A stretch of DNA of 59,546 bases, taken from the NCBI GenBank assembly GCA_017450275.1, contig JAFSVD010000016.1, positions 1 to 59,546 on the forward strand. The letters run 5' to 3'. A program made the position numbers and the translations under genes. Of the stretch, positions 11,311 through 59,546 are shown in pieces (positions within the stretch are counted from its first letter, which is position 1; the number at the start of each line of letters is the position of its first letter). The notes beneath the pieces were generated by a model. That model was not told where the DNA came from, made no database searches, and saw only the letters and a program-made list of their open reading frames with translations. Source of the stretch: Desulfovibrio sp. Lineage in GTDB: Bacteria; Desulfobacterota; Desulfovibrionia; Desulfovibrionales; Desulfovibrionaceae.

Positions 11311-11327
11311 GAGGCTGGAGAGTGCGT

Positions 11328-11618
11328 GTGAACGAAAAGGTAGAAGATTTAACGGTGGAGTACGAGGAAGAAGGCCAGATTCTTGTCAAAGAACTTGATA
11401 AATGCATTTTGTCAAAAGGAGCCTGGGCAACTGTTCTTTTTCGCTACTCCGAATGGCATCACGGAACACAAGAGTATGGGCCGGATAAGTATGTGATCCG
11501 CAGATACCAGAAAAACGGCGGAGAATACAAACTCAAATCAAAGTTTGTCATCTCAAGCTGCGATCAAGCTCGAAAGATTATTGACGCGCTTGAAGCTTGG
11601 CTTCCTAAAGAGTCATAA
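11328..11618 (+). CDS. Conserved hypothetical protein, about 96 residues
   Basis: The protein is acidic at the start (EKVEDLTVEYEEEGQILVKELD) and then mixed, with KGAWATVLFRYSEW, YVIRRYQKNGGEYKLKSKF and a C-terminal helix (DQARKIIDALEAWL). It looks like a small compact beta-rich domain of a type I believe is conserved in Desulfovibrio relatives, with no assigned function. GTG at 11328 is preferred since GGAG lies seven bases upstream; GTG at 11322 is the alternative. Confidence 0.7.
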   Translation: MNEKVEDLTVEYEEEGQILVKELDKCILSKGAWATVLFRYSEWHHGTQEYGPDKYVIRRYQKNGGEYKLKSKFVISSCDQARKIIDALEAWLPKES

Positions 11619-11625
11619 AAAATAG

Positions 11626-11666
11626 TTATAAAAAAGGGTAAGGTTTTCTGCCTTACCCTTTTTTAT
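11626..11666. terminator. Strong bidirectional terminator
   Basis: GGGTAAGG and CCTTACCC form a perfect stem around a TTTTCTG loop, flanked by six or more A and T residues. It ends the plus-strand gene pair and also faces the minus-strand nuclease array. Confidence 0.9.
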
Positions 11667-11738: not shown

Positions 11739-14195
11739 TCATAGAGTTATTGATTGAATAGAACAGGTGTGTTTTTTGCTTTTTGTGTCGTAATTTATTC
11801 CAACAAGGATAACTGATCCAGATTGGTCGAGTAATGACGCTGGATAATTTTTTTCTAAAATTTGTGTAATTGCTGAATTGGCGCTTTTATTCCACTTCAG
11901 TTCAATACAAAGTATGGGATATCGATTTTTTTCTCTTGGGAGAAAGACACAATCGGCAAAACCTTTACCCGTAGGAAATTCTCTGACAATGGTATACATC
12001 TCACGAGCTGCATAGAAGGCAAGGGAGATGGTGTAGGCCAGAGCGTTTTCGTCGTTGTAGGTGAGGATACTTGTTTCAAGATGCACTGCCTCGATACCCT
12101 TGGCCACTGCCTCGTGATCTTTTGCCAATACAGCTTTGAGAAGATTTTCAGACTGTTTGATGGCTTGGACAACTTTTGGCCAGCCTTTGTTTTGGATGGC
12201 GCTGACGAATTCATAGGATATTTCTTTATTCGGTATATGGATTGTCTGATTTGAGGTATTATAAGAAAGATAGCCAAGATGGACAAGCAGGGTGAGCACA
12301 TCATCCTGACTAGTAAAAGTACGCATATCGTTTGTAAAAGTTTTTGTATTTATTTTTTCGTAATCGTTTGATAGAAGTTTGATTATAGTTTCTTTTAGTC
12401 CGTAATAATCCATTGTAATATATATCTGAAGTGCTTCATAGGTTTCAGTATTATTCCAGTATGTATCAAAAACACCTCTTATGATATATTCGATAACAGA
12501 CTTTGGGTTATATATTGAAAAATGAGTATCGATAGTATATCCATCATACCATACTTTACATTGATTGAAATCTCTATAAAAAGATTTACATAGTTTCTTA
12601 ACCTCATTCTCTGTAAAACCAACAAATTCTGTGAAAGGCTTTGCGTTCAACATGGAAAATTCGTTAAACATATTGAGCGCAGAATGCGTTCCATACTTTT
12701 TTATGGGTAAAATACCTGTCATGTAGACTAGAGCAATATGTTCTTGATCTTTAAAGAAGTATCGCAAAAAATCGAAGTATTTCTCTTGCCATTCTTTGTT
12801 TTCACGGAATTCTCTAAAGATACAATCCCATTCATCTATAGTAATAACAAACTTTATTCCTGTTTTCAGTGAAATATTTTTCATGAATTCATTTATATCT
12901 AAAGATGAATATTCAAAATCGTATTGTATTATTAAGTCATTATAGATTGCTGATTTTATGGATTCGATGAGCTTATTTATGTCGTGAGTTTGACTAAGAA
13001 ATGTTTGGATATTTATCTTGATAACGATGTATTTATTGGCATGTATAAGGAATGACTTATCTGATTTTATTTTAAACTTGCTAAAAGTTACGCTTGCCCT
13101 TGCTGTCCTGTCATAATAGGAAGAGATCATGTTTACTGTTGTTGTCTTTCCAAATCTACGAGGACGGCTAATACATATATACTTTTGTTTTGTATTAATG
13201 AATCTATTTGTGTAGGTAAGGAGTTCTGTTTTGTCAATATAAAATGGAGAATTTGATATATCAAGAAAAGCAGAGTCACCTGGATTAAGACATGTAAAAA
13301 ATTTACTGCTTAAATTTGAATGAATTGTTGACGTATACTCGGCAAGAGAGCATTGCCTGAGACAAGTCATAAGAGCAAGGGGATTATAGAGATTGTTCTT
13401 TCCATCAAAAGAGTATGTTTGACAAGAGCTTAGTAATTCATTGAAATAAGTATTTGCCGGTATTGAAAGTCGTTTTGCATTATTTTCTATCCATTGGTAA
13501 AAATTATATTCAATCTCTTTCTGAGTAAAGCCAGTGAGATTTGAAAAATCTACTATATTTGAAATGTTATCAATTTTTTGAAATGTTGAAAATACACCTG
13601 TTTTTTCATATGTTTCGCTTCCAGTAATTAATAAAAATCTGAAATTTTTTGTATTCGATTCCAGGACTTCATAGAATGTTTTAACTCTTTTTCGTATTTC
13701 AATGAGATTCTTAATTGAGGTAATACAGGATGAAATCGGCTGCTCATAATTTGCAATAAGAACTACGATATAGCCATAAGAAGAAAAAATATTGTTTATT
13801 AAATCATTCAATGCTTCATCGCATGCTTTGCTTGTGCATTGAATTGAAAAAGAATCAGCAAGTGATGTTATTTTATTGAGTAGAGACTCTTCAAATTTCT
13901 CGGAATTATTTGTGCTGAAATTTGATAAATTAAATGCAATGATTGGAAAGGGATTGTCATGAAATTGACTTGCACATTCTTCTGCAGCAAGTCCTTTAAA
14001 GAGTTCTGTTTTGCCTGAGAACAAAGAGATCAATGTAGAGAGTAAAAGAGTCTTACCAAAACCGAATGGACGGGAAAGAAAAAAGGGAGACCAATTGCTG
14101 GCTAGATCAGCAAGAGCATCGCTTTTGTCTACGTAGAGATAGTTGTTGTTGCGGATAATAGAAAAATCATTTATTGCAATCGGTAGTTTTTTCAT
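11739..14195 (-). CDS. Double AAA-ATPase-like / PD-(D/E)XK nuclease protein, copy 1
   Basis: The 818-residue protein has two related AAA-ATPase-like modules followed by a nuclease-type domain. Module 1 (residues about 1-300) has the loop FGFGKT, but its Walker B position reads LIANYEQP, lacking the usual DE. Module 2 (about 305-600) has SRPRRFGKT and an intact ITIDEWDCIFRE. The C-terminal domain has GKGFADCVFLP...CIELKW, matching the D...ExK core of PD-(D/E)XK nucleases. Ordinary relatives (AAA-ATPase-like plus DUF1703) have one module and about 520-580 residues, so the extra module is unusual. The start has no ribosome site and overlaps copy 2 by 29 bases. The biological role of the family is not established. 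Confidence 0.8.
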   Translation of the reverse strand: MKKLPIAINDFSIIRNNNYLYVDKSDALADLASNWSPFFLSRPFGFGKTLLLSTLISLFSGKTELFKGLAAEECASQFHDNPFPIIAFNLSNFSTNNSEKFEESLLNKITSLADSFSIQCTSKACDEALNDLINNIFSSYGYIVVLIANYEQPISSCITSIKNLIEIRKRVKTFYEVLESNTKNFRFLLITGSETYEKTGVFSTFQKIDNISNIVDFSNLTGFTQKEIEYNFYQWIENNAKRLSIPANTYFNELLSSCQTYSFDGKNNLYNPLALMTCLRQCSLAEYTSTIHSNLSSKFFTCLNPGDSAFLDISNSPFYIDKTELLTYTNRFINTKQKYICISRPRRFGKTTTVNMISSYYDRTARASVTFSKFKIKSDKSFLIHANKYIVIKINIQTFLSQTHDINKLIESIKSAIYNDLIIQYDFEYSSLDINEFMKNISLKTGIKFVITIDEWDCIFREFRENKEWQEKYFDFLRYFFKDQEHIALVYMTGILPIKKYGTHSALNMFNEFSMLNAKPFTEFVGFTENEVKKLCKSFYRDFNQCKVWYDGYTIDTHFSIYNPKSVIEYIIRGVFDTYWNNTETYEALQIYITMDYYGLKETIIKLLSNDYEKINTKTFTNDMRTFTSQDDVLTLLVHLGYLSYNTSNQTIHIPNKEISYEFVSAIQNKGWPKVVQAIKQSENLLKAVLAKDHEAVAKGIEAVHLETSILTYNDENALAYTISLAFYAAREMYTIVREFPTGKGFADCVFLPREKNRYPILCIELKWNKSANSAITQILEKNYPASLLDQSGSVILVGINYDTKSKKHTCSIQSITL

Positions 14196-16653
14196 GATCT
14201 ATTTGTTTTATGCTACATGTGTGTTTTTTAGTTTTTATATTGTAATTTATCCCAACAAGAATGATTGGATCAGATTGATTAAGTAATGATGCCGGGTAAT
14301 TTTTTTCTAAAATTTGTGTAATTGCTGAATTGGCACTTTTATTCCATTTTAGTTCTACGCAAAGGATAGGATAGCGGCCTTTTTCCCTTGGCAGAAAAAC
14401 GCAATCGGCAAAACCTTTGCCAGTAGGAAATTCTCTGACAATGGTATAGAACTCTCGTGCTGCATAGAAGGCAAGAGAGATGGTGTAGGCCAGCGCATTT
14501 TCATCATTGTAGGTGAGAATACTTGTTTCAAGATGTACTGCCTCGATACCCTTGGCTACCGCCTCGTGATCTTTTGCCAATACAGCTTTGAGAAGATTTT
14601 CAGAATTTTTGATAGCTTGGACAACTTTTGGCCAGCCTTTATTTTGGATGGCGCTGACAAATTCATAGGATATCTCTTTATTTGGTATATGGACTGTTTG
14701 ATTTGAGGCATTATAGGAAAGATAACCAAGATGAACAAGCAGGGTGAGTACATCATCCTGACTCGCAAAAGTACGCATATCGTTTGTGAAAGTTCTTGTA
14801 TTTATTTTTTCATAGTCATTTGATAAAAGTTTTATTATTGTTTCTCTTAATCCGTAATAATCCATAGTAATATATACTTGCAATGCTTCATATGTCTCTG
14901 TGTTATTCCAATATGTATCAGAAACACCTCTTATGATATACTCAATGACAGATCGTGGGTTATATATTGAAACGCAAGTATTAACAGTATATCCATCATA
15001 CCATGCTTTACACTGATTAAAATCTCTTTTAAAAGATTTGCACAGTTTTTTTACTTCATCCTCCGTAAAACCAACAAATTCTGTAAAGGGGTGTGCATTC
15101 AACATAGAAAATTCGCTAAACATATTGAGGGCTGAATGCGTCCCATATTTTTTTATTGGTAAAATCCCTGTCATATAAACAAGAGCTATATGCTCTTGAT
15201 CTTTAAAGATATATCGTAAAAAATCGAGATATTGCTCCTGCCATTCTTTGTTTTTGCGAAATTCCCTGAAAATACAATCCCATTCATCGACAACAATAAC
15301 AAACTTTTTCTGTGTTTTATTTGAGATTGCTTTTAAGGATAAGTTTATATCATCACTTATATAGGCTGCGTCAAATTCTTTTATTAGGTCATCATGAATC
15401 GTGCTTGTTATCTTTGCGATAAGAGTATTAATTTCATGTGTTTGGCTTAAAAATATTTGAATATTTATTTTTATGACTATGTATTTATTAGCGTGTGTAC
15501 AAAATGACTGATCGTTTTGTATTTTTAGCCCTTTAAATGCTACTTTTGCATTTCCAGTTAGATCGTAGTAGGAAGCTAGCATATTAGCTGCTATTGTTTT
15601 TCCAAATCTACGTGGTCTGCTGATGCAAATATATTTTTGAACTGTATTTATAAATTCATTTGTATAAATTAGTAACTCTGACTTATCAACGTATATTTTA
15701 GAATTTTTTGCAGCTATAAAATCGCTATCACCAGGGTTGAGGCATGAAAACATTTTTTGTGACGGATATGTATATGAGTTGTAGGAGGAAATATCACCTT
15801 GTATTAAACATTTTATAAGAGCTTGAGGGTTGAATAGAAACCGTCCTTCTGATTCGCTATTGTTCGATTCTATATACATGAGTTGAGACCATAATGTCTC
15901 TTCTGGAATAGATCTACTGCTTGAAATATACTTAATATAATCTGCAAAATAGTATTTTATTTCATCTATTGTAAATCCAATAATATCAGTATAGTATTCA
16001 TCATTTGTGATGTCCATACCATTTCTTAAGCATATAAGGTTGCTTCCTTCGTAAGATTTCTCTGAGCCAGCAATACAAGTAAAGCGTATATATTCATTAT
16101 AGCTCTCTATTGTTTCGTAGAATTCTTTTAGTGTCTTTTGTATAAAAAATAATACATCGTTATTAGTGTATGAATTTAGTATAGGAAGATCATAGTCATC
16201 AATGAGGATGGCAAGATGTCCATACTTTTTATAGATTTCTTCTATAAGATGTGATATTTTATTTTGAAGAGATGTATCTCGAATATCTATTGAATATTCA
16301 TTTGATAGTTTATTGATTATTCTGTCAAACGAATTTTCAAAATTTTTAATAGAACTTGTAGCAATTTGTAAAAATTTGAAGTATAGTACTGGTGTTGGTC
16401 TTGACGCATATTCTTCAATTAAAGAATATGCACTTAATCCTTTAAAAAGCTCTTTTTCTCCCGAAAAAATCGATTTTAACGTTGATAATGTAAGCGATTT
16501 TCCAAAGCCTTTCTGTCTATAAATGATATAATTTTCGCGATTTTCTATCAGATCAAACAATTTCAACGTCTTGTCAACATAAAGATATCTTTGTTGAATA
16601 ATCGTAGAAAACGTTGGGATTCCTAATGGGATTTTAGGTATTGTTATATTCAT
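14167..16653 (-). CDS. Double AAA-ATPase-like / PD-(D/E)XK nuclease protein, copy 2
   Basis: This 828-residue paralogue has the same order of parts as copy 1. Module 1 has GFGKSLTLSTL near residue 48 and LIDDYDLP as Walker B. Module 2 has SRPRRFGKT and VVDEWDCIFRE. The C-terminal FADCVFLP...CVELKW segment is almost identical to copy 1. The last 400 residues are highly similar between copies 1 and 2, while the first 300 are very different. The start at 16653 has only AT-rich sequence before it and no ribosome site. It begins 15 bases after copy 3 ends. Confidence 0.8.
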   Translation of the reverse strand: MNITIPKIPLGIPTFSTIIQQRYLYVDKTLKLFDLIENRENYIIYRQKGFGKSLTLSTLKSIFSGEKELFKGLSAYSLIEEYASRPTPVLYFKFLQIATSSIKNFENSFDRIINKLSNEYSIDIRDTSLQNKISHLIEEIYKKYGHLAILIDDYDLPILNSYTNNDVLFFIQKTLKEFYETIESYNEYIRFTCIAGSEKSYEGSNLICLRNGMDITNDEYYTDIIGFTIDEIKYYFADYIKYISSSRSIPEETLWSQLMYIESNNSESEGRFLFNPQALIKCLIQGDISSYNSYTYPSQKMFSCLNPGDSDFIAAKNSKIYVDKSELLIYTNEFINTVQKYICISRPRRFGKTIAANMLASYYDLTGNAKVAFKGLKIQNDQSFCTHANKYIVIKINIQIFLSQTHEINTLIAKITSTIHDDLIKEFDAAYISDDINLSLKAISNKTQKKFVIVVDEWDCIFREFRKNKEWQEQYLDFLRYIFKDQEHIALVYMTGILPIKKYGTHSALNMFSEFSMLNAHPFTEFVGFTEDEVKKLCKSFKRDFNQCKAWYDGYTVNTCVSIYNPRSVIEYIIRGVSDTYWNNTETYEALQVYITMDYYGLRETIIKLLSNDYEKINTRTFTNDMRTFASQDDVLTLLVHLGYLSYNASNQTVHIPNKEISYEFVSAIQNKGWPKVVQAIKNSENLLKAVLAKDHEAVAKGIEAVHLETSILTYNDENALAYTISLAFYAAREFYTIVREFPTGKGFADCVFLPREKGRYPILCVELKWNKSANSAITQILEKNYPASLLNQSDPIILVGINYNIKTKKHTCSIKQIDHEKTTDCNK

Positions 16654-16668
16654 AATGATGCTATTCTT

Positions 16669-19107
16669 TTATGTAGAAATCGATTCGATTCTACATGTAT
16701 GTTTTTTTGTCTTCGGAGAATAGGAAATGCCTACAAGGAGTACCTGTCCACGACCGAGAAGGGCGTGCGGGTAGTTGCGCTCAAGACATTGGGCAATGGC
16801 CGTGTCCGCACTGCTTTTCCATTTGAGTTCCACAATGAGAGGAGGAAGAGTCGTATTGGGGCGGGGGAGAAAAATACAGTCGGCAAAGCCTTTGCCTGTT
16901 GGACATTCTCGCACAATGGTATAGAACTCTCGTGCTGCAAAGAAGGCGAGGGAGATGGTGTAGGCCAGCGCGTTTTCGTCGTTATAGGTGAGAATGCTTG
17001 TTTCAAGATGGACTGCTTCGATGCCTTCAGCCACTTTCTTTGCATCTTTGGCAAGAACAGCGCGAAGGAGTTCCTCTGAATGTCTGATCGCTTGAACAAC
17101 CGTCGGCCAGCCGTTGTTCTGTATGGCACTGATAAATTCAAAGGCTATTTCTTTGTTCGGTATACGGACACTTTGGCTTTGTGTATCGTATGAGAGATAG
17201 CCAAGATGAACAAGAAGCGTTAAGATATCGTCTTGAGATGAGAATGTCCTCATATCATTTGTAAATGTTCTTGTATTTATTTTTACACTTTCATTAGATA
17301 ATAGTTTTATAATTGTTTCTTTTAGTCCTAGAAACTCCATTGTAATATATATTTGAAGAGCCTCGTATGTTTCTGTGTTGTTCCAATATGTGTCAAATAT
17401 CCCTCTTGAAATATATTCAATGACCGACCTTGGATTGTAGATCGAATGGCAATTATCTATTTTGTATCCATCATACCATATTTTACATTCTGGAAAATCT
17501 CTTTTATAGTCATTGCAGAGATTTTTAACTTCAGATTCCGTAAACCCAACAAATTCTATAAAGGGACTAGCATTTAACATGGAGTATTCATTGAACATGT
17601 TAAGTGCTGAATGTGTTCCGTATTTTTTGATTGGTAAGATGCCTGTCATATAAACCAGGGCAATATTGTCTTGGTCTTTAAACCAATATCGTAGAAAATC
17701 TAAATATTGTTCTTGCCAGTCTTTCTTATCCTTAAATTCCCTAAAAATGCAATCCCACTCATCGATTGTGATTACAAATTTTTTCCCAGTATTTAAGTAG
17801 ATATTTCTTAAAAATTGATTTAAATTGCTTGACGATAGCTCGATATCGAATTGCTTGACAAGGTCATAGTAGAGAGAATCTTTAATTTTCTCTATGAGTT
17901 GAGTAATGTCATGTGTTTGGCTGAGAAATGTTTGAATATTGATTTTTATTACAATAAATTTATTGGCAAATTTTTTAAAAGATACATCTTTGAATATTTT
18001 TAAATTTTTGAAGACGTCTTTGGCTGATCCTGTTCTGTCATAGAAAGAAGATAGCATGTCTATCGTTGTCGTTTTTCCAAAACGACGTGGTCGACTTACG
18101 CATATATATTTTTTGCTGGTATTTACATATTTATTGACATAACTTATCATTTCTGTTTTGTCTATGTAAATATCTGATTGAATTATATGTATAAATGCTG
18201 AATCTCCGGGATTTAAACATGTGTAGGATTTGCTCGTGGTATTTTTATCGATATATGTTGAGTAATTTTCAGGATCTGAATCGCTAAGACATTGTAAAAT
18301 TGCATGGGGATCATAAATTGTATCTATGCCATCAAGCAAAAATTCACCCGAATATGCTGCTATACTGTCAAGAAATTCAGCCTTTGATAAAGGTGTATTG
18401 TTATTTTCAGTGTAGTATAAGATGACTATATCCTCTAATTCATCCCGGTTAAATCCTACTATATCGAAGAATTTTTTTGAATTTGTAATATTGTTTAGTC
18501 TTTTTAAGGTTGAAAAAAATCCGAATTCTTCAAAATCTTCTTTACCTGTGACAAATATGAATCTAAATAGGTTTATATTGCTATCTATAATTTCGTAGAA
18601 TTCTTTTATTACTTCTCTTATTTTTACTAAAATATTGTATTTATTGAAATTTTTTGCAAGACTTTTATCGTAATGATCAATCAAAAGGACTATTGATCCC
18701 TGTTTTTCATGCAATACTGAAAGCAAGTGCTGAAATGTATATACAATATCTCCTTTATAATAGTCTATTGAGTATTTTTTAAAATAGAAATCTATTATAC
18801 TTTGTAGTGATTTTTGATACTTTTCAGCACTGTCATCTATGAGCGCACCTAAATCAAATCGCAGAACAGGATACGAATTTTTCACCCACTGTTCAGCATA
18901 AAGGCCTTTAAACAGCACTTTATTGCCGCTAAACAGTGCTTCAAGCGTTGACACAGCAAGCGATTTACCAAATCCATGTGGGCGTGATAAAAAGAAGAAA
19001 TCTCCATCTTCTATGAGATTAACCAATTGTTTTGTCTTGTCTATGTAAAAATACTCTCCTGATACGATTTTAGAAAAAGATGGTATTCCTATAGGCAGTT
19101 TTTTCAT
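16669..19107 (-). CDS. Double AAA-ATPase-like / PD-(D/E)XK nuclease protein, copy 3
   Basis: The 812-residue protein repeats the design. Module 1 has SRPHGFGKSLAVSTL and LIDHYDKS, module 2 SRPRRFGKT and ITIDEWDCIFRE, and the nuclease end FADCIFLP...IVELKW. The ATG at 19107 (reading KKLPIGIPSF) is preferred over an upstream TTG since the other copies start the same way. Base composition changes inside the gene: the nuclease end near 16680-17230 is much richer in G and C than the ATPase part. A type 1 miniature element (19131-19458) lies 23 bases upstream, in what should be the control region. Confidence 0.8.
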   Translation of the reverse strand: MKKLPIGIPSFSKIVSGEYFYIDKTKQLVNLIEDGDFFFLSRPHGFGKSLAVSTLEALFSGNKVLFKGLYAEQWVKNSYPVLRFDLGALIDDSAEKYQKSLQSIIDFYFKKYSIDYYKGDIVYTFQHLLSVLHEKQGSIVLLIDHYDKSLAKNFNKYNILVKIREVIKEFYEIIDSNINLFRFIFVTGKEDFEEFGFFSTLKRLNNITNSKKFFDIVGFNRDELEDIVILYYTENNNTPLSKAEFLDSIAAYSGEFLLDGIDTIYDPHAILQCLSDSDPENYSTYIDKNTTSKSYTCLNPGDSAFIHIIQSDIYIDKTEMISYVNKYVNTSKKYICVSRPRRFGKTTTIDMLSSFYDRTGSAKDVFKNLKIFKDVSFKKFANKFIVIKINIQTFLSQTHDITQLIEKIKDSLYYDLVKQFDIELSSSNLNQFLRNIYLNTGKKFVITIDEWDCIFREFKDKKDWQEQYLDFLRYWFKDQDNIALVYMTGILPIKKYGTHSALNMFNEYSMLNASPFIEFVGFTESEVKNLCNDYKRDFPECKIWYDGYKIDNCHSIYNPRSVIEYISRGIFDTYWNNTETYEALQIYITMEFLGLKETIIKLLSNESVKINTRTFTNDMRTFSSQDDILTLLVHLGYLSYDTQSQSVRIPNKEIAFEFISAIQNNGWPTVVQAIRHSEELLRAVLAKDAKKVAEGIEAVHLETSILTYNDENALAYTISLAFFAAREFYTIVRECPTGKGFADCIFLPRPNTTLPPLIVELKWKSSADTAIAQCLERNYPHALLGRGQVLLVGISYSPKTKKHTCRIESIST

Positions 19108-19130
19108 ATTAGTTCTCAACAATTTTATTA

Positions 19131-19458
19131 CAGTAAATGAAATAAAGTTTTTCGCACGACTTTTTCTAGAGTTTTACCATTGTTTTTCTGTAGATACCTG
19201 AATCCGTGAGCTGTTGGATTGAAAGGGCAGGATTTTCAGCTGAAGTCCACGAACGATGGGGGAGTATGGAGGTTCAAGAAAATCCGAAGATGCACCAAAT
19301 CGAAAATTCCTTATCGTTCCAAATTTGGGGAAATAAAAATAAGGATGGTTCACCACGCAAGAAGCCAGATCCTAAACCACGGGCAGAAAACGGGAGTGAA
19401 GCTGCCCCTGAAGGGATTTCTACGCCATATCTTGTGAAAAAGTTTATTTCGTTTACTA
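19131..19458. mobile_element. Type 1 miniature inverted-repeat element, 328 bp
   Basis: The ends CAGTAAATGAAATAAAG and (reverse complement) TAGTAAACGAAATAAAC are inverted repeats of about 30 bp, flanked by TA at 19129-19130 and 19459-19460. The inside is closely similar to the copy at 21144-21598 but about 127 bp shorter near the right end. It has no transposase, so it needs one in trans. TA duplication resembles IS630/Tc1-like elements, but the family is inferred. It separates copy 3 from the disrupted copy 4, ending four bases before the stop of the latter. Confidence 0.8.
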
Positions 19459-19462
19459 TATG

Positions 19463-21043
19463 TCATTTTTCAAATGGTGTTATCTTGCATGTATGTTTTC
19501 TCGTTTTGCTGTCATAGTTTATTCCAACAAGAAGCATAGATTTTGAGAGATTTTTCAGCGAGTCAGGATATTGGTGGCCTAAAATCTGATCGATGGCTGT
19601 TTGGGGGGTGTGATTGCGCTTCAGTTCAACGACAAGCAGAGGAAATGGGGTTCCGTGCTTGGGGAGAAAGACACAATCTGCAAAACCCTTTCCCGTTGGC
19701 AATTCGCGGACAATTGTGTAGTGCTCTCGTGCCGCATAGAAGGCGAGGGAAATGGTGTAGGCCAAGGCATTTTCGGAGTTTTTGGTGAGATGACTTGTTT
19801 CAAGATGCGCTGCTTCAATCCCCTTTGCCACGCGCTCTTCATCACAAGTGAGGACAGCGTTGAGCAGATCCTCTGAGTTTTTAATGGCAAGAACAATATT
19901 CGACCAGTTTTTGTTCTGTATAGCGTTGACAAATTCATAGGATATTTCTTTGTTTGGAATTGAAACAGTCTGTTTGGATATGTCATAGGATACGTATCCA
20001 AGATGAACGAGAAGTGTCAAGATATCGTCTTGAGAGTTGAATGTTCTCATGTCATTGGTAAAAGTTTTTGTATTTATCTTAACACTTTCACCTGATAACA
20101 GCTTTATTATCGTTTCTCGCAAGCCATCATAATCCATTGTGATATAGAGTTGAAGTGCTTCGTATGTTTCTGTATTATTCCAATACGTATCAAAGATGCC
20201 CCTTGAAATATATTCAATGACAGATCGAGGATTGTATATAGATACGTAATTGTCTATTGTATATCCATCGTACCATTTTTTACAGTTCTCAAAATCTCGA
20301 TTATATATTAAGCAGAGATTTTTTACTTCTGATTCTGTAAATCCAACAAATTCTGTGAAGGGACTGGCACTCAGCATTGAATATTCGTTGAACATATTCA
20401 GGGCAGAATGGGTGCCATATTTTTTTATCGGCAAAATACCTGTCATATAAACCAATGCAATGTGATCTTGGTCTTTAAACCAATATCGTAGGAAATCAAG
20501 GTATTCTTCTTGCCAATCTTTTTTATCTTTGAACTCTCTAAAAATACAATCCCACTCGTCAATTGTTATAATAAATTTATATGATGTTCTTGATGTTATA
20601 TTACGCATGAACTCGTTGAGATCATTTGATGTGTACTCTGTTCCGTATTGTCGTATGAAATCATTGTATAATAAATCTTTTATCTTTGTAATGAGAGATG
20701 CACTGTTTTGTGATTGACTGAGTATCGTTTGAACATTCAGCTTTATTACTATGTACTTATTAGCGTATATTTCAAAAGATTCGTCTTTTTGTATTTTTAA
20801 TTTGGTAAAGAGTTTGCTTGCGCATCCTGTCTTGTCGTAATAGGCTGAGATCATATTGATGGTCGTTGTCTTTCCAAAGCGCCTGGGTCTGCTAATGCAT
20901 AGATATTTTTTATTGGTATTGATAAATCTGTTTGTGTTAATGAGAAGTTCTGTTTTGTCTACATAAATTTCTGATTGTAGTATTTCTTTAAAGGCCTTTT
21001 CACCTGGATTTATTAATGCGAAGAATTTGCCGGTTGTGTTCAT
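19463..21043 (-). CDS. C-terminal part of disrupted nuclease copy 4 (module 2 plus nuclease)
   Basis: This 526-residue open frame, from ATG at 21043, holds a complete module 2 (SRPRRFGKT, ITIDEWDCIFRE) and the nuclease domain (FADCVFLP...VVELKR). It closely resembles an ordinary single-module member of the family. Homologous sequence continues upstream without a start codon to 21143, where the miniature element begins. It could still be translated if a promoter and start exist in or near the element. No ribosome site is visible. Confidence 0.7.
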   Translation of the reverse strand: MNTTGKFFALINPGEKAFKEILQSEIYVDKTELLINTNRFINTNKKYLCISRPRRFGKTTTINMISAYYDKTGCASKLFTKLKIQKDESFEIYANKYIVIKLNVQTILSQSQNSASLITKIKDLLYNDFIRQYGTEYTSNDLNEFMRNITSRTSYKFIITIDEWDCIFREFKDKKDWQEEYLDFLRYWFKDQDHIALVYMTGILPIKKYGTHSALNMFNEYSMLSASPFTEFVGFTESEVKNLCLIYNRDFENCKKWYDGYTIDNYVSIYNPRSVIEYISRGIFDTYWNNTETYEALQLYITMDYDGLRETIIKLLSGESVKINTKTFTNDMRTFNSQDDILTLLVHLGYVSYDISKQTVSIPNKEISYEFVNAIQNKNWSNIVLAIKNSEDLLNAVLTCDEERVAKGIEAAHLETSHLTKNSENALAYTISLAFYAAREHYTIVRELPTGKGFADCVFLPKHGTPFPLLVVELKRNHTPQTAIDQILGHQYPDSLKNLSKSMLLVGINYDSKTRKHTCKITPFEK

Positions 21044-21143
21044 CGTAAAGTATACTGGATACTTCTCCGGCTTTGATTCTTGAAGACATTGAAAAATGGC
21101 AAGAGGTTTATAAATTGTTGTTTTCCCGTCGAAAGAATAATTA

Positions 21144-21598
21144 TAGTAAACGAAATAAAGTTTTTCACACGACTTTTTCTAGAGTTTTACCATTGTTTTT
21201 CTACAGATACCCGAATCCGTGAGCTGTTGGATTGAAAGGACAGGATTTTCAGCTGAAGTCCACGAACGATGGGGGAGAGTATGGAGGTTCAAGAAAATCC
21301 GAAGATGCACCAAAGCGAAAATTCCTTAGCGTTCCAAATTTGGGGAAATAAAAATAAGGATAGTTCACCACGCAAGAAGCCAGGTTCTAAGCCACGGGCA
21401 GAAAACGGGAGTGAAGCTGCCCCTGAAGAGAATTCTACGCCTCAAGGAGTCTCTATGACCGAGACAGGGGGGATACTGCCCAATAATTGGTGTCTAGAAT
21501 TTTTATAGGTTATATCTACTGATAATCTATAAAAATTTTAGAAAATATCTGTTGAATGACATAACAATGTCTTGTGAAAAAGTTTATTTCGTTTACTA
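21144..21598. mobile_element. Type 1 miniature inverted-repeat element, 455 bp, inside nuclease copy 4
   Basis: Inverted ends TAGTAAACGAAATAAAGTTT and its partner (two mismatches over 30 bp) are flanked by TA at 21142-21143 and 21599-21600. No transposase frame is present. The interior carries a segment (about 21206-21310) also found at 19193-19300 and 30579-30660. The 455-bp length and TA duplication fit a non-autonomous derivative of an IS630/Tc1-like element; the parent is not in the window. Confidence 0.85.
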
Positions 21599-22337
21599 TA
21601 TTTGAATATTTCTGAAATTTTTCCAAATAATAATTTATTTTTGTATTATTGAGTGAAAGTACCTCTTCGAGCTCTTCTTGGGTAAAGCCAATGATATCTG
21701 CGAACTGCTCGGTATGTGTAATATCGTTCAATGATTTTAATGTTGCATAAATTCCTGTCTCTTCATAGCTTTCACTGCCTAGAACGAGAAGGAATCGGTA
21801 TCTTTCTCTATAAGCATCGATGATTCGGTAAAAGTTTCGTAATATATTATAAATTGGGAGTAATAGGTCGTTGTCTTTTTGAATCCTTGTTATTGGATCA
21901 TCGTAATTAGCCAGTAAAACAGCAATAGATCCGTATTTTTCGTACAGGGCATTGATGATTGTTTCAAGGTCTTTGGTATGCGGTAGGGCATATTCTTTTG
22001 CTGTTGCTTCCAGCTGTTTGTACAATGAAACGTTGAAAGCATCGACCGTTTGTGTGTTAAGCTTTGCAAAATCAAGTCGGAGAACCGGATTGGGGTGCTT
22101 TGCAGCGTTTTGTACCCACGTTGCAGCGGCGAGTCCTTGAAAGATTGCATACCGACCACGAAACATGGCCTCTATTGTTGAGAGCGTGAGTGATTTGCCA
22201 AATCCTTCTGGGCGTGAAAGAAAATAGCATTCGCCCTCTTCAATAAGATTTTGTAATTTTTTTGTCTTATCAACGTAAATATAGTTTCTTTTTATAATAT
22301 TTTCAAAGTTTCTTATACCAATGGGTAAATTTCTCAT
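21516..22337 (-). CDS. N-terminal part of disrupted nuclease copy 4 (module 1 only)
   Basis: The 273-residue open frame contains module 1 (SRPEGFGKSLTLSTI near residue 43, Walker B position LLANYDDP). It then reads into the miniature element for about 28 residues, from IVNEINFFTRHC to a TAG. The Walker B Asp-Glu pair is lost, as in copy 1. As the first gene of the array it would receive transcription first. No ribosome site precedes the ATG. It could yield a stand-alone module, or be inactive. Confidence 0.65.
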   Translation of the reverse strand: MRNLPIGIRNFENIIKRNYIYVDKTKKLQNLIEEGECYFLSRPEGFGKSLTLSTIEAMFRGRYAIFQGLAAATWVQNAAKHPNPVLRLDFAKLNTQTVDAFNVSLYKQLEATAKEYALPHTKDLETIINALYEKYGSIAVLLANYDDPITRIQKDNDLLLPIYNILRNFYRIIDAYRERYRFLLVLGSESYEETGIYATLKSLNDITHTEQFADIIGFTQEELEEVLSLNNTKINYYLEKFQKYSNIVNEINFFTRHCYVIQQIFSKIFIDYQ

Positions 22338-22364: not shown

Positions 22365-22913
22365 TTATGACCGTGTGATCCAGATGGCTGCTTGATAGAG
22401 GGAGGGAAAAAGGGGGATATGGTTGGCGCATGCCCACCTATCTTCAAGGCTATCCCCCACACCCAGTTTAATGGTGGCAATGCCTAAGGCTTGTCCTGCC
22501 TCAACATCTCGGCGTCTATCCCCAATCATCCAGGATTGCTTGGGATCAATAGGGTAGGTGGCAAGGGCTTGTGCGAGCATCCCAGGCTTTGGTTTCCGAC
22601 ACGGGCAAGGACCTGTGATATCGGGGTGATGGGGGCAGTGATACCAGGCAAGGGGTTTTGCGCCATAGGCAGCCAATTCAGCATCGATGCTCTCTTCCAA
22701 GGCCTTGTAGTCGTCTTCGCTGAAAAAACCACGTGCAATCCCCGATTGATTGCTCACAATCACAAGCCGATAGTTGGCAGAGACGAAGACTTTAAGGGCT
22801 TCTTTGGCGCCATCGATCCATTGCCATGTTTTGCGCGTGCCAACATAGCCAAAATCGACATTCAGGGTGCCGTCGCGATCGAGAAAAATGGCTTTGCCTA
22901 AGCTAGACATCAT
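22365..22913 (-). CDS. gmhB: D-glycero-D-manno-heptose 1,7-bisphosphate phosphatase
   Basis: The 182-residue HAD-family protein removes the C7 phosphate during ADP-heptose synthesis for the lipopolysaccharide core. Its HAD motif I is FLDRDGTLN near residue 10, motif II is IVSNQSG, and motif III/IV is RKPKPGML with IGDRRRDVEAG. The Cys/His set CPHHPDITGPCPC is the zinc loop typical of GmhB. The two ATGs at 22913 and 22910 overlap the end of trmI, so the genes are coupled; the longer frame inside trmI is not used. The AT-rich nuclease array begins 27 bases downstream. Confidence 0.9.
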   Translation of the reverse strand: MMSSLGKAIFLDRDGTLNVDFGYVGTRKTWQWIDGAKEALKVFVSANYRLVIVSNQSGIARGFFSEDDYKALEESIDAELAAYGAKPLAWYHCPHHPDITGPCPCRKPKPGMLAQALATYPIDPKQSWMIGDRRRDVEAGQALGIATIKLGVGDSLEDRWACANHIPLFPSLYQAAIWITRS

Positions 22914-23763
22914 TTGTGTCCAATCCCAAGCGATCTCTGCGTGCGGCTTCCTGTTTGCGTTCACGCGTACCCTTGGGGTTTCGTGCCAGAAAGTCTTCAC
23001 TCACCACTTGGTGGCGGCAGAAAATGAGAAAACCCGTATGGGCGATCATGCGATCTTGGGGGCGCAATCTGTCGGCAAGGGGTTTCCATTGACGCTCAAA
23101 GAGCTCACTCACGGTGATATGGGCGACAGCCTTTGTCTCCAAGGTGAGCAAGAGTTCATGCACCTGGTCGATGGTTGGGAGCAAAAAGCCCAGCGTAGCC
23201 CCTGGTCGAACGGCGGCAAGCGCCTGGTCGATATAACACCAGGGAGTGCGGACATCCAAGAAGAGAGCATCGGCGTTTTCTGCGCAAAAACCCTCGGCAA
23301 TGTCTTTGACGTGGAGTTCAACGTTTTCGCCAAGACCAGCCCAACGGAGATTGCGTCGCGCAAGGTTCACAAATTCTTCCCGCGCATCGTGGCTGATCAC
23401 ACGTCCAGTGGGTCCTGCAAAATAGGAGAGCGCGCAGGTGAGTGCACCTGAGCCGCAACCTGCTTCGATGATGGTGCGATCAGAACCCGCCCCCAGATGC
23501 ACGCAGATTTGGGCAATATCTTTGGGGTAGATGATTTGTGTTTGGCGTTTTATCCCCTGCAGGCGGTCAAAAAGTGTTGCCTCTTCGAGGAGGATGGGCA
23601 CAAGGGTGTGCGTTTTGATTTCATCGCCAAAATTGCTTTGATGAACCAATTCAGCGGCAACAATGCCATCGGTTGTGTGCCAGTCTTCCCCTGGAGTTAA
23701 GCGTTTGAGAGCGCGTTTGCCGCGTGGGGTGATAAAGATAACAAGGGATCCCCAAGGGATCAT
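22903..23763 (-). CDS. trmI: tRNA (adenine-58 N1) methyltransferase
   Basis: The 286-residue protein has the TrmI layout. An N-terminal beta domain (GSLVIFITPRGKRALKRL) precedes a Rossmann methyltransferase with IIEAGCGSGALTCALS near residue 98 and LFLDVRTPW near residue 168. It forms m1A58 in the tRNA T loop. The start has GAGGAGG close upstream. A type 2 miniature element ends 15 bases before that site region (element 23783-23976), so this gene may be transcribed from the element end. Confidence 0.88.
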   Translation of the reverse strand: MIPWGSLVIFITPRGKRALKRLTPGEDWHTTDGIVAAELVHQSNFGDEIKTHTLVPILLEEATLFDRLQGIKRQTQIIYPKDIAQICVHLGAGSDRTIIEAGCGSGALTCALSYFAGPTGRVISHDAREEFVNLARRNLRWAGLGENVELHVKDIAEGFCAENADALFLDVRTPWCYIDQALAAVRPGATLGFLLPTIDQVHELLLTLETKAVAHITVSELFERQWKPLADRLRPQDRMIAHTGFLIFCRHQVVSEDFLARNPKGTRERKQEAARRDRLGLDTNDV

Positions 23764-59365: not shown

Positions 59366-59546
59366 GTGCGCTTGGCATGCGTTTATTCCAATGGGTGTAA
59401 GTCCCTAGTCCGGCTAATTCAGGGCAAGGACAAAGCGAAAGGCAAGGTTTGCATCGCGAGGTGCAGGCGAGAGGAAGCCCTTAGCAGTCTCTTGAACCCA
59501 CGAACAGGAACAGTATATGAGGCAGGGTGCAGGGGTAAGGCTGCGA
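59366..59546 (+). mobile_element. 5' end of a group II intron, cut by window edge
   Basis: The boundary GTGCG at 59366 fits the group II intron 5' consensus. Typical domain I landmarks follow: GGTGTAAGTCCC, GCGAAAGGCAAGG, CATCGCGAGGTGCAGGCGAG, GGAAGCCC and ACGAACAGGAACAGTAT. The rest of the ribozyme and any reverse transcriptase would lie beyond the window. It is inserted upstream of the rpsF operon, in the opposite direction. Confidence 0.82.

What the first reader, a model, noticed from the sequence alone, without database searches (positions are those of the whole stretch)
11739..22337. Tandem array of four double-AAA nuclease proteins
Four adjacent paralogues each join two AAA-ATPase-like modules to a PD-(D/E)XK nuclease domain. 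The usual family form has one module. All are on one strand, tightly packed (29-bp overlap, 15-bp gap), AT-rich, and placed between housekeeping genes. A tandem set with diverged first modules and near-identical nuclease ends looks like a diversifying recognition system, for example phage defence or inter-strain competition. Function is inference.
Basis: partly seen in the sequence, partly recalled or inferred. Interest (0 to 1): 0.75.

Follow-up and report, generated by a model that had tools for sequence, protein, structure and literature searches.

The report
Tandem nuclease genes with dead ATPase
A relative of rumen Desulfovibrio carries a row of four related genes that join one worn-out ATP-driven module, one apparently working ATP-driven module and a DNA-cutting domain; the row is a rare variant of a common family of unknown function, and its fast-changing dead module is its odd feature.

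Summary
The observation mostly holds. Three intact genes (11739-19122, minus strand) each encode two PF09820 AAA modules plus a PF08011 nuclease. The fourth copy is split by a terminal-inverted-repeat element (about 21139-21610). Near-identical nuclease ends hold only for units 1 and 2.

It keeps GK[S/T] but lacks both P-loop arginines and the Walker-B glutamate in 10 of 10 copies; module 2 and nearly all single-module relatives keep them. Module 1 is one clade derived from single-module proteins of the host's own phylum; module 2 plus nuclease groups with single-module proteins of gut Bacillota. Doubles were found in 6 of 79 genomes of the genus and not elsewhere in the sets searched.

The array fills a gmhB-tadA interval that is short in three relatives. 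Within it module 1 is 36-42% identical, module 2 plus nuclease 65-91%. Silent sites show shared recent descent of the C-terminal part of units 1 and 2 only.

I read it as a self-contained nuclease gated by an inert, diversifying module. Phage defence is possible but untested: no PADLOC match of the array, no clear defence neighbours.

The parts
11739..14195 (-). Unit 1: module 1 (about 1-235, pseudo-ATPase: RPFGFGKT, IANYE), linker, module 2 (about 302-535, RPRRFGKT, IDEWD), PD-(D/E)XK nuclease end
14167..16653 (-). Unit 2: same plan (module 1 RQKGFGKS, IDDYD; module 2 RPRRFGKT, VDEWD; nuclease); overlaps unit 1 by 29 bp
16669..19122 (-). Unit 3: same plan (module 1 RPHGFGKS, IDHYD; module 2 RPRRFGKT, IDEWD; nuclease); listed start TTG 19122, likely ATG at 19107
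19463..21043 (-). Unit 4, C-terminal piece: module 2 (RPRRFGKT, IDEWD) and nuclease, own ATG
21516..22337 (-). Unit 4, N-terminal piece: module 1 (RPEGFGKS, LANYD); its last residues are read from the inserted element
21139..21610 (.). Inserted repeat element with terminal inverted repeats that splits unit 4 (ends approximate)
19127..19471 (.). Second copy of the same element (94-95% identical over about 300 bases) between unit 3 and unit 4
11628..11666 (-). Terminator-like hairpin (16 pairs, T tail) downstream of unit 1
   Evidence: consensus match only

Best explanation
Each gene encodes a self-contained, ATP-driven PD-(D/E)XK nuclease of the DUF1703 kind to which a second, catalytically dead AAA module is fused at the N-terminus. 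Shown by sequence: the two modules come from two distant branches of one family (module 1 nested in single-module proteins of the host's own phylum; module 2 plus nuclease grouping with single-module proteins of gut Bacillota). Module 1 is one clade, keeps the P-loop lysine but has lost the two P-loop arginines and the Walker-B glutamate, and changes fast, while module 2 and the nuclease keep their motifs. The array is a lineage-specific set of tandem copies, two of which share recent C-terminal parts. Inferred: module 1 binds nucleotide without hydrolysing it, packs against module 2 as a locked half of a pseudo-dimer and holds the nuclease off; its variable part and the very variable linker sense a changing target (a phage or rival-element product); contact lets module 2 cycle ATP and release DNA cleavage. 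On this reading the array is a small set of alternative sensors on one shared effector. The fusion and the dead module are near certain (about 0.9), the gating role likely (about 0.55), a target in phages or other invading DNA a guess better than its rivals (about 0.4).
For: Pfam: two PF09820 stretches plus PF08011 in 3 of 3 intact units and in 3 of 3 intact doubles of relatives. Motifs: module 1 RR 0 of 10, DE 0 of 10, GK[ST] 10 of 10; module 2 RR 10 of 10, DE 9 of 9 visible; single-module rows RR 137 of 140, DE 142 of 143. Knizewski et al. 2007 (PMC1913061, passages) had proposed that just these two arginines stand in for Sensors I and II. Tree of 81 modules: module 1 one clade, 100/99, inside a 38-row clade (100/100) with single-module proteins of the host's phylum; module 2 with 24 Bacillota modules, 100/100, on a branch of 3.34. 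Columns E734, D750, E767, K769 and Q780 are invariant in 6 of 6 intact doubles (motif names assigned by eye). Mean identity over 15 pairs: 0.27 for 76-140, 0.22 for the linker, 0.62-0.69 from 302 on. Silent codon differences of units 1 and 2: 64/101 in module 1 plus linker, 64/242 from residue 545 on, Fisher p 2e-10. Module 2 plus nuclease of the array is one clade, 96/97, and that of the 8 doubles one clade against 5 Bacillota proteins, 100/100.
Against: No structure could be predicted, so pseudo-dimer and gating have no structural support. The Walker-B aspartate is lost too in units 1 and 4, so Mg-ATP binding there is doubtful. No PADLOC hit of the array; among 10 neighbours given, 3 had matches (LOG-like 2.5e-5, TadA-like 0.002, TrmI-like 8e-19 to mad2), partial and over common enzyme folds. 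Three single-module rows also lack RR (L026, L052, L097) and one lacks the Walker-B glutamate (L192), so the losses are not wholly confined to module 1. All module-1 copies form one clade, so the motif loss may be one event, not ten. Fast change also fits relaxed constraint; linker dN/dS is 0.44-1.04 in the 9 of 15 pairs where it could be computed. In the 81-row tree module 2 alone is not resolved as one clade (2 changes; one clade in 31% of bootstrap trees). Non-clade of the array's first modules is borderline (p-AU 0.046), and units 1+2 together is not rejected (0.20).
Confidence: 0.45

Rival explanations
1. Module 1 is a passenger in decay. A chance fusion put a redundant AAA module in front of a working single-module enzyme; it has lost catalysis and drifts, and the array is duplication with no sensing role.
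For: Long module-1 end branches (0.58-1.24 against 0.15-0.64 for module 2); Walker-B acid pair wholly lost in units 1 and 4; linker dN/dS near 1 in 4 of the 9 pairs computed; unit 4 split by an element, a broken copy in G065 and a split one in G023.
Against: The P-loop GK[ST] is kept in 10 of 10 and the first 75 residues stay 43-59% identical over 15 pairs. Frames stay open over about 300 codons in 4 of the 6 genomes with doubles. In the 11 of 15 pairs where it could be computed, dN/dS of module 1 is 0.21-0.39 with dS of 1.5-2.8, which is purifying, though higher than module 2 (0.12-0.17 in 4 of 15).
Confidence: 0.25
2. A DNA recombination, mobility or selfish-element nuclease, like the older reading of the YhgA/Rpn family: it cuts DNA and promotes exchange or spread, and copy-number growth and movement are its main effects.
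For: Double genes sit at four or more chromosomal places: G000, G064, G067, and one place shared by G023 and G070. The array fills an interval that is short in G070, G023 and G068. The family is multi-copy (30 PF09820 matches in this genome). YhgA-like proteins are PD-(D/E)XK relatives in the same 2007 paper. A DUF1703 homologue is reported as a component of the Tribolium MEDEA selfish element (stated in PMC6387759, section 14).
Against: I saw no transposase or integrase ORF with the doubles in the loci read (not searched for by profile beyond one search's ten neighbours). Rpn proteins themselves are reported as anti-phage toxin-antitoxin proteins (PMC10327210, abstract), so this rival overlaps the defence reading. 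Rpn varies at its C-terminus, these at the N-terminus.
Confidence: 0.2
3. An effector exported to host cells or rival bacteria, as suggested for the DUF1703 expansion of Cardinium.
For: 10 of 25 Cardinium cCpun paralogues had a predicted signal peptide and were read as putative secreted nucleases (PMC6387759, section 14).
Against: The same section reports no signal peptides in two other Cardinium genomes. N-termini here begin MKKLPIAINDFS, MNITIPKIPLGI and MKKLPIGIPSFS, without a hydrophobic signal stretch by eye (no program was run). An ATP-dependent module points to the cytosol. The three named doubles come from rumen MAGs, not intracellular symbionts.
Confidence: 0.08

Closest known systems
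DUF1703 proteins: PF09820 AAA-ATPase_like + PF08011 PDDEXK_9 (Knizewski et al. 2007, PMC1913061; Cardinium expansion, PMC6387759)
   Same: Module 2, middle region and nuclease have the family order and motifs. Expansion, gain by transfer and intragenic recombination among paralogues are in print for Cardinium (section 14 read)
   Different: An extra N-terminal AAA module from another branch of the family, with the two P-loop arginines and the Walker-B glutamate lost
Single-module DEWD-type proteins of gut Bacillota (Selenomonas, Lachnospiraceae and others)
   Same: 48-55% identical (best segment) from about residue 300 to the C-terminus; same Walker motifs as module 2
   Different: No first module in 77 of 77 such loci.
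Single-module type A proteins of the host's phylum (for example C45 of this genome, L001)
   Same: Module 1 is a clade (100/99) nested among them; L001 is 35% identical to the first module of unit 3
   Different: They keep RPRRFGK[ST] and DEYD and carry their own nuclease end (L001)
Rpn / YhgA-like nucleases (PMC10327210, abstract and outline read)
   Same: Multi-copy PD-(D/E)XK nuclease genes spread by gene transfer, with one variable and one conserved part
   Different: No AAA module in Rpn (recalled); the variable part there is C-terminal and made separately as an antitoxin

Membership tests
DUF1703 (PF09820 + PF08011) | AAA-ATPase_like domain over Pfam cut-off | tested here: met
   Two stretches in each intact unit, 211-229 bits against a cut-off of 26.1
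DUF1703 (PF09820 + PF08011) | C-terminal PDDEXK_9 nuclease over cut-off with motifs I-IV | tested here: met
   39.6, 37.8 and 25.7 bits against 25.5 (unit 3 barely over); E734, D750, E767, K769, Q780 invariant in A2 (motif assignment by eye)
DUF1703 (PF09820 + PF08011) | Walker A RPRRFGK[ST] and Walker B DE[YW]D in module 2 | tested here: met
   RR 10 of 10, DE 9 of 9 visible
DUF1703 (PF09820 + PF08011) | The same Walker motifs in module 1 | tested here: not met
   RR 0 of 10, DE 0 of 10
DUF1703 (PF09820 + PF08011) | One AAA module per protein | tested here: not met
   Two modules; hence filed as a variant
Known anti-phage system | Match to a PADLOC-DB model | tested here: not met
   0 of 5 array proteins at E up to 1
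Known anti-phage system | Place in a defence island | tested here: inconclusive
   10 neighbours of the window array and of the doubles in L056, L057, L058 were given: 7 no PADLOC match, 3 partial matches over common enzyme folds; Pfam names are those of common enzymes for 9, none for 1. Not all neighbours were tested
Known anti-phage system | Lowers phage plating in vivo | not testable with these tools
   Needs an experiment
Rpn / YhgA-like | Rpn-type nuclease domain with variable C-terminal part | tested here: not met
   Pfam lists PF08011 and no Rpn model at E up to 1; the C-terminus is the conserved end

The most novel reading that the evidence does not exclude
A new kind of modular immune nuclease: an inactive, nucleotide-locked AAA module serves as a fast-evolving sensor in front of a conserved ATPase-nuclease, and tandem copies exchange or homogenise the effector part while keeping different sensors. 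The natural loss of three residues together would also support the 2007 proposal that the two P-loop arginines do the work of Sensors I and II.
Probability: 0.25. Interest if true: 0.75.

Novelty: new variant of a known kind. Interest (0 to 1): 0.45.

Why it matters
PF09820-PF08011 proteins occur in many copies in some bacteria, and a 2019 paper calls their biological role still unclear (PMC6387759, section 14). The listings, and the passages I read of six of those papers (PMC6387759, PMC12039267, PMC10952713, PMC1913061, PMC11602996, PMC7046167), showed no tested function of this family; I did not open the others, apart from the abstract of the Rpn paper. A natural variant in which one of two AAA modules has lost just the residues proposed to be catalytic gives a handle on how the family uses ATP. 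If module 1 is the sensor, the array shows which part of the protein meets the changing target.

Tried and rejected
Chance or frameshift artefact: rejected, intact doubles occur in three other genomes. Doubles as a common architecture: rejected for the sets searched. Full-length matches in 4 of 79 genus genomes, split or broken ones in 2 more; in 297 class genomes full-length only in G000, G067 and G070; in 297 phylum genomes only in G000. In those calls at most 12, 3 and 3 candidates per genome were scored in most of the larger sets, and not all matches were listed. 3 of the 80 best of 470 named relatives were double. Two long open frames in G087 (854, 713 aa) have one AAA module each. Phage origin: unit 3 alone found nothing in viral contigs; A2 found 6 loci, each single-module; 29 phage and 59 plasmid records match, and the 15 and 20 listed have spans of about 1.1-1.7 kb. 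PHROGs: two matches at E 0.04 and 0.09, not convincing. PDB by sequence: best E 0.06, unrelated chains. Rfam: no match in the array. Promoter scan: 55 found against 47.3 (sd 7.5) in shuffles. Positive selection: dS saturated. One clade of the array's first modules: borderline. No metagenome scan was made.
Full report
OBSERVATION. One search gives three minus-strand ORFs of 818, 828 and 817 aa (unit 1 11739-14195, unit 2 14167-16653, unit 3 16669-19122) with a 29-bp overlap and a 15-bp gap. Pfam finds two PF09820 stretches and one PF08011 stretch in each. The fourth unit is two ORFs, 21516-22337 (module 1) and 19463-21043 (module 2 plus nuclease), separated by an element with inverted ends (arms 21139-21203 and 21539-21603). 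A copy 94-95% identical over about 300 bases lies at 19127-19471 between units 3 and 4. The element gives 21 full or partial matches in this genome, on contigs C3, C8, C11, C17, C18, C53, C62 and C65.

THE FAMILY IN THIS GENOME. G000 (1.84 Mb in 70 contigs, 74% complete) has 30 PF09820 matches, 8 of them the modules of this array. Elsewhere 13 matches lie in frames of 525-585 aa, which one search shows with one AAA region each; one frame of 416 aa near the end of contig C61 has a full first module and part of a second; the remaining matches are in shorter or partial frames. The C61 frame stops about 95 bases before the contig end, so it is truncated or broken.

WHO ELSE HAS DOUBLES. Profile A1 of the three intact units against 79 genomes of the genus gave full-length matches in 4 (G000, G064, G067, G070; frames of 819-842 aa), a split copy in G023 and a broken one in G065. 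At most 12 candidates were scored in most of the larger sets and the list was cut, so counts are lower bounds. Profile A2 (six intact doubles) against 297 class genomes and 297 phylum genomes gave no full-length match outside the genus. In the named collection 470 relatives were found and the best 80 kept: 3 doubles, all from rumen Desulfovibrionaceae MAGs (RGIG3727, RGIG8338, RGIG3607; their ORFs agree with G064, G070 and G067), and 77 single-module proteins, mostly Bacillota by title, matching from about residue 300 on. One search checked this with a module profile: 87 AAA ORFs in the 80 loci, 3 longer than 700 aa, those three with two modules. That the window's genome is a Desulfovibrio relative, and its phylum Desulfobacterota, is inferred from these titles.

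MODULE 1 IS A PSEUDO-ATPASE. One search aligned the AAA modules to one profile, and one search counted after dropping loci that repeat others and identical rows (partial rows of one gene may still be counted twice among the single-module rows). Module 1: RR of RPRRFGK[ST] in 0 of 10, Walker-B DE in 0 of 10, GK[ST] in 10 of 10, Walker-B Asp in 8 of 10. Module 2: RR 10 of 10, DE 9 of 9. Single-module rows: RR 137 of 140, DE 142 of 143; the exceptions are L026, L052, L097 (RR) and L192 (DE). Knizewski et al. 2007 (PMC1913061, passages) called DEYD the classical Walker B of the family and proposed that the second and third arginine of RPRRFGKS replace Sensor I and Sensor II. Module 1 has lost just these two and the glutamate. 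Since module 1 is one clade, this may be a single loss; the later variety (AN, DD, DH, DN) suggests the site has been free since.

ORIGIN. The tree of 81 modules puts the 9 first modules used in one clade (100/99) nested in type A single-module proteins of the host's phylum, and the 9 second modules with 24 Bacillota modules (100/100, branch 3.34). In that tree the second modules alone are not resolved as one clade; with the nuclease added, the 8 doubles are one clade (100/100) against 5 Bacillota proteins. In the 79 genus genomes no whole unfused module-2-type protein was listed, only a 96-aa nuclease-end piece in G070. I infer transfer from gut Bacillota and one fusion; direction and number are inferred.

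THE ARRAY IS LOCAL. In G070 (L179) and G068 (L172) the matches pbp1a, trmI, gmhB, tadA and LOG, and in G023 (L178) pbp1a, trmI, gmhB and tadA, follow one another within about 3.5 kb, with 0.7-1.1 kb between gmhB and tadA, too short for any intact array gene. In the window the same interval holds 10.6 kb of array. G023 and G070 carry their double gene at another place, shared by the two. G064 has it between an aldolase and a sulfotransferase-like gene, G067 between enolase and folD. L057 shows a nuclease-end remnant just upstream of its double, a trace of an older copy.

DIVERGENCE AND RECOMBINATION. Within the array module 1 is 36-38% identical for the three intact pairs and 36-42% with unit 4; module 2 is 65-74%, residues 546-700 75-91%, nuclease 72-88%. 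Segment means over 15 pairs of six proteins: 0.53 (1-75), 0.27 (76-140), 0.43 (141-160), 0.35 (161-235), 0.22 (linker), 0.62, 0.65, 0.69. dN/dS (own Nei-Gojobori script) is 0.21-0.39 for module 1 (11 of 15 pairs computable), 0.44-1.04 for the linker (9 of 15) and 0.12-0.17 for module 2 (4 of 15), with dS high or saturated in nearly all pairs. Module 2 plus nuclease makes the array one clade (96/97) with units 1 and 2 together (100/99). For module 1 the best tree does not; holding the four together gives p-AU 0.046, holding units 1 and 2 together 0.20. Silent differences at codons for the same residue fall from 64/101 (module 1 plus linker) to 64/242 (545 to end) between units 1 and 2, p 2e-10; in the other 14 pairs the same contrast was below 0.01 only once (U2-G070, 0.0056). 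So the alike ends of units 1 and 2 reflect conversion, or a duplication followed by exchange of the first module, not selection alone. Intragenic recombination among DUF1703 paralogues is in print for Cardinium and a midge Rickettsia (PMC6387759, section 14), so this part is not new.

FUNCTION. Nothing here tests function. PADLOC gives no match of the array, NCBIfam none of note. Of 10 neighbours given to PADLOC, 3 matched in part: the LOG-like protein (2.5e-5), the TadA-like deaminase (0.002) and the TrmI-like methyltransferase (8e-19 to mad2, residues 64-211); Pfam explains all three as common enzymes. Papers: PMC6387759 (section 14 and passages: expansion, recombination, role unclear), PMC12039267 (passage), PMC10952713 (passage: a table lists PF09820 as an AAA+ domain of RADAR RdrA, PARIS1 and Old-tin), PMC11602996 (passage: a domain table only), PMC7046167 (passage: DUF1703 named for a Wolbachia nuclease domain), PMC1913061 (passages). 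None of what I read tests a PF09820-PF08011 protein. By analogy with Rpn nucleases (PMC10327210, abstract and outline), a multi-copy nuclease with one variable part is a fair candidate for phage defence.

Noticed in passing
window 19127-19471 and 21139-21610: Short repeat element with terminal inverted repeats; its one small ORF has no PHROGs match and no transposase was recognised; 21 full or partial matches in this genome, some at contig ends.
   Followed up: partly
window 59450-59546, plus strand: Start of a group II intron (Rfam RF02001, 55.8 bits) cut by the window's end.
   Followed up: no
L034 1511-2749 (G000 contig C61 end): Fifth double-module gene, frame stops in module 2; the last bases of the contig resemble part of the repeat element, which may have broken both gene and assembly (by eye).
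   Followed up: partly
window 11318-11617, plus strand: Small ORF beside the array with 33-35% identical matches near gmhB in G023 and G070; no function known.
   Followed up: partly
L057 1332-1601, and G070 contig C206 25020-25298: Remnants of further nuclease ends of this kind in G070, a sign of lost copies.
   Followed up: no
L031 81-899 and L032 379-2205 (G023): Double gene with its two parts on two contigs that carry the neighbours of the G070 gene; something seems to be inserted in it.
   Followed up: partly
window 22903-23763, minus strand: TrmI-like tRNA methyltransferase gene whose product matches PADLOC's mad2 model in part (8e-19); Pfam GCD14, found next to gmhB in relatives, so ordinary.
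   Followed up: yes
genome G519: 137 first-look candidates for this family in one 3.5-Mb genome, only 3 of them scored: a possible very large expansion.
   Followed up: no
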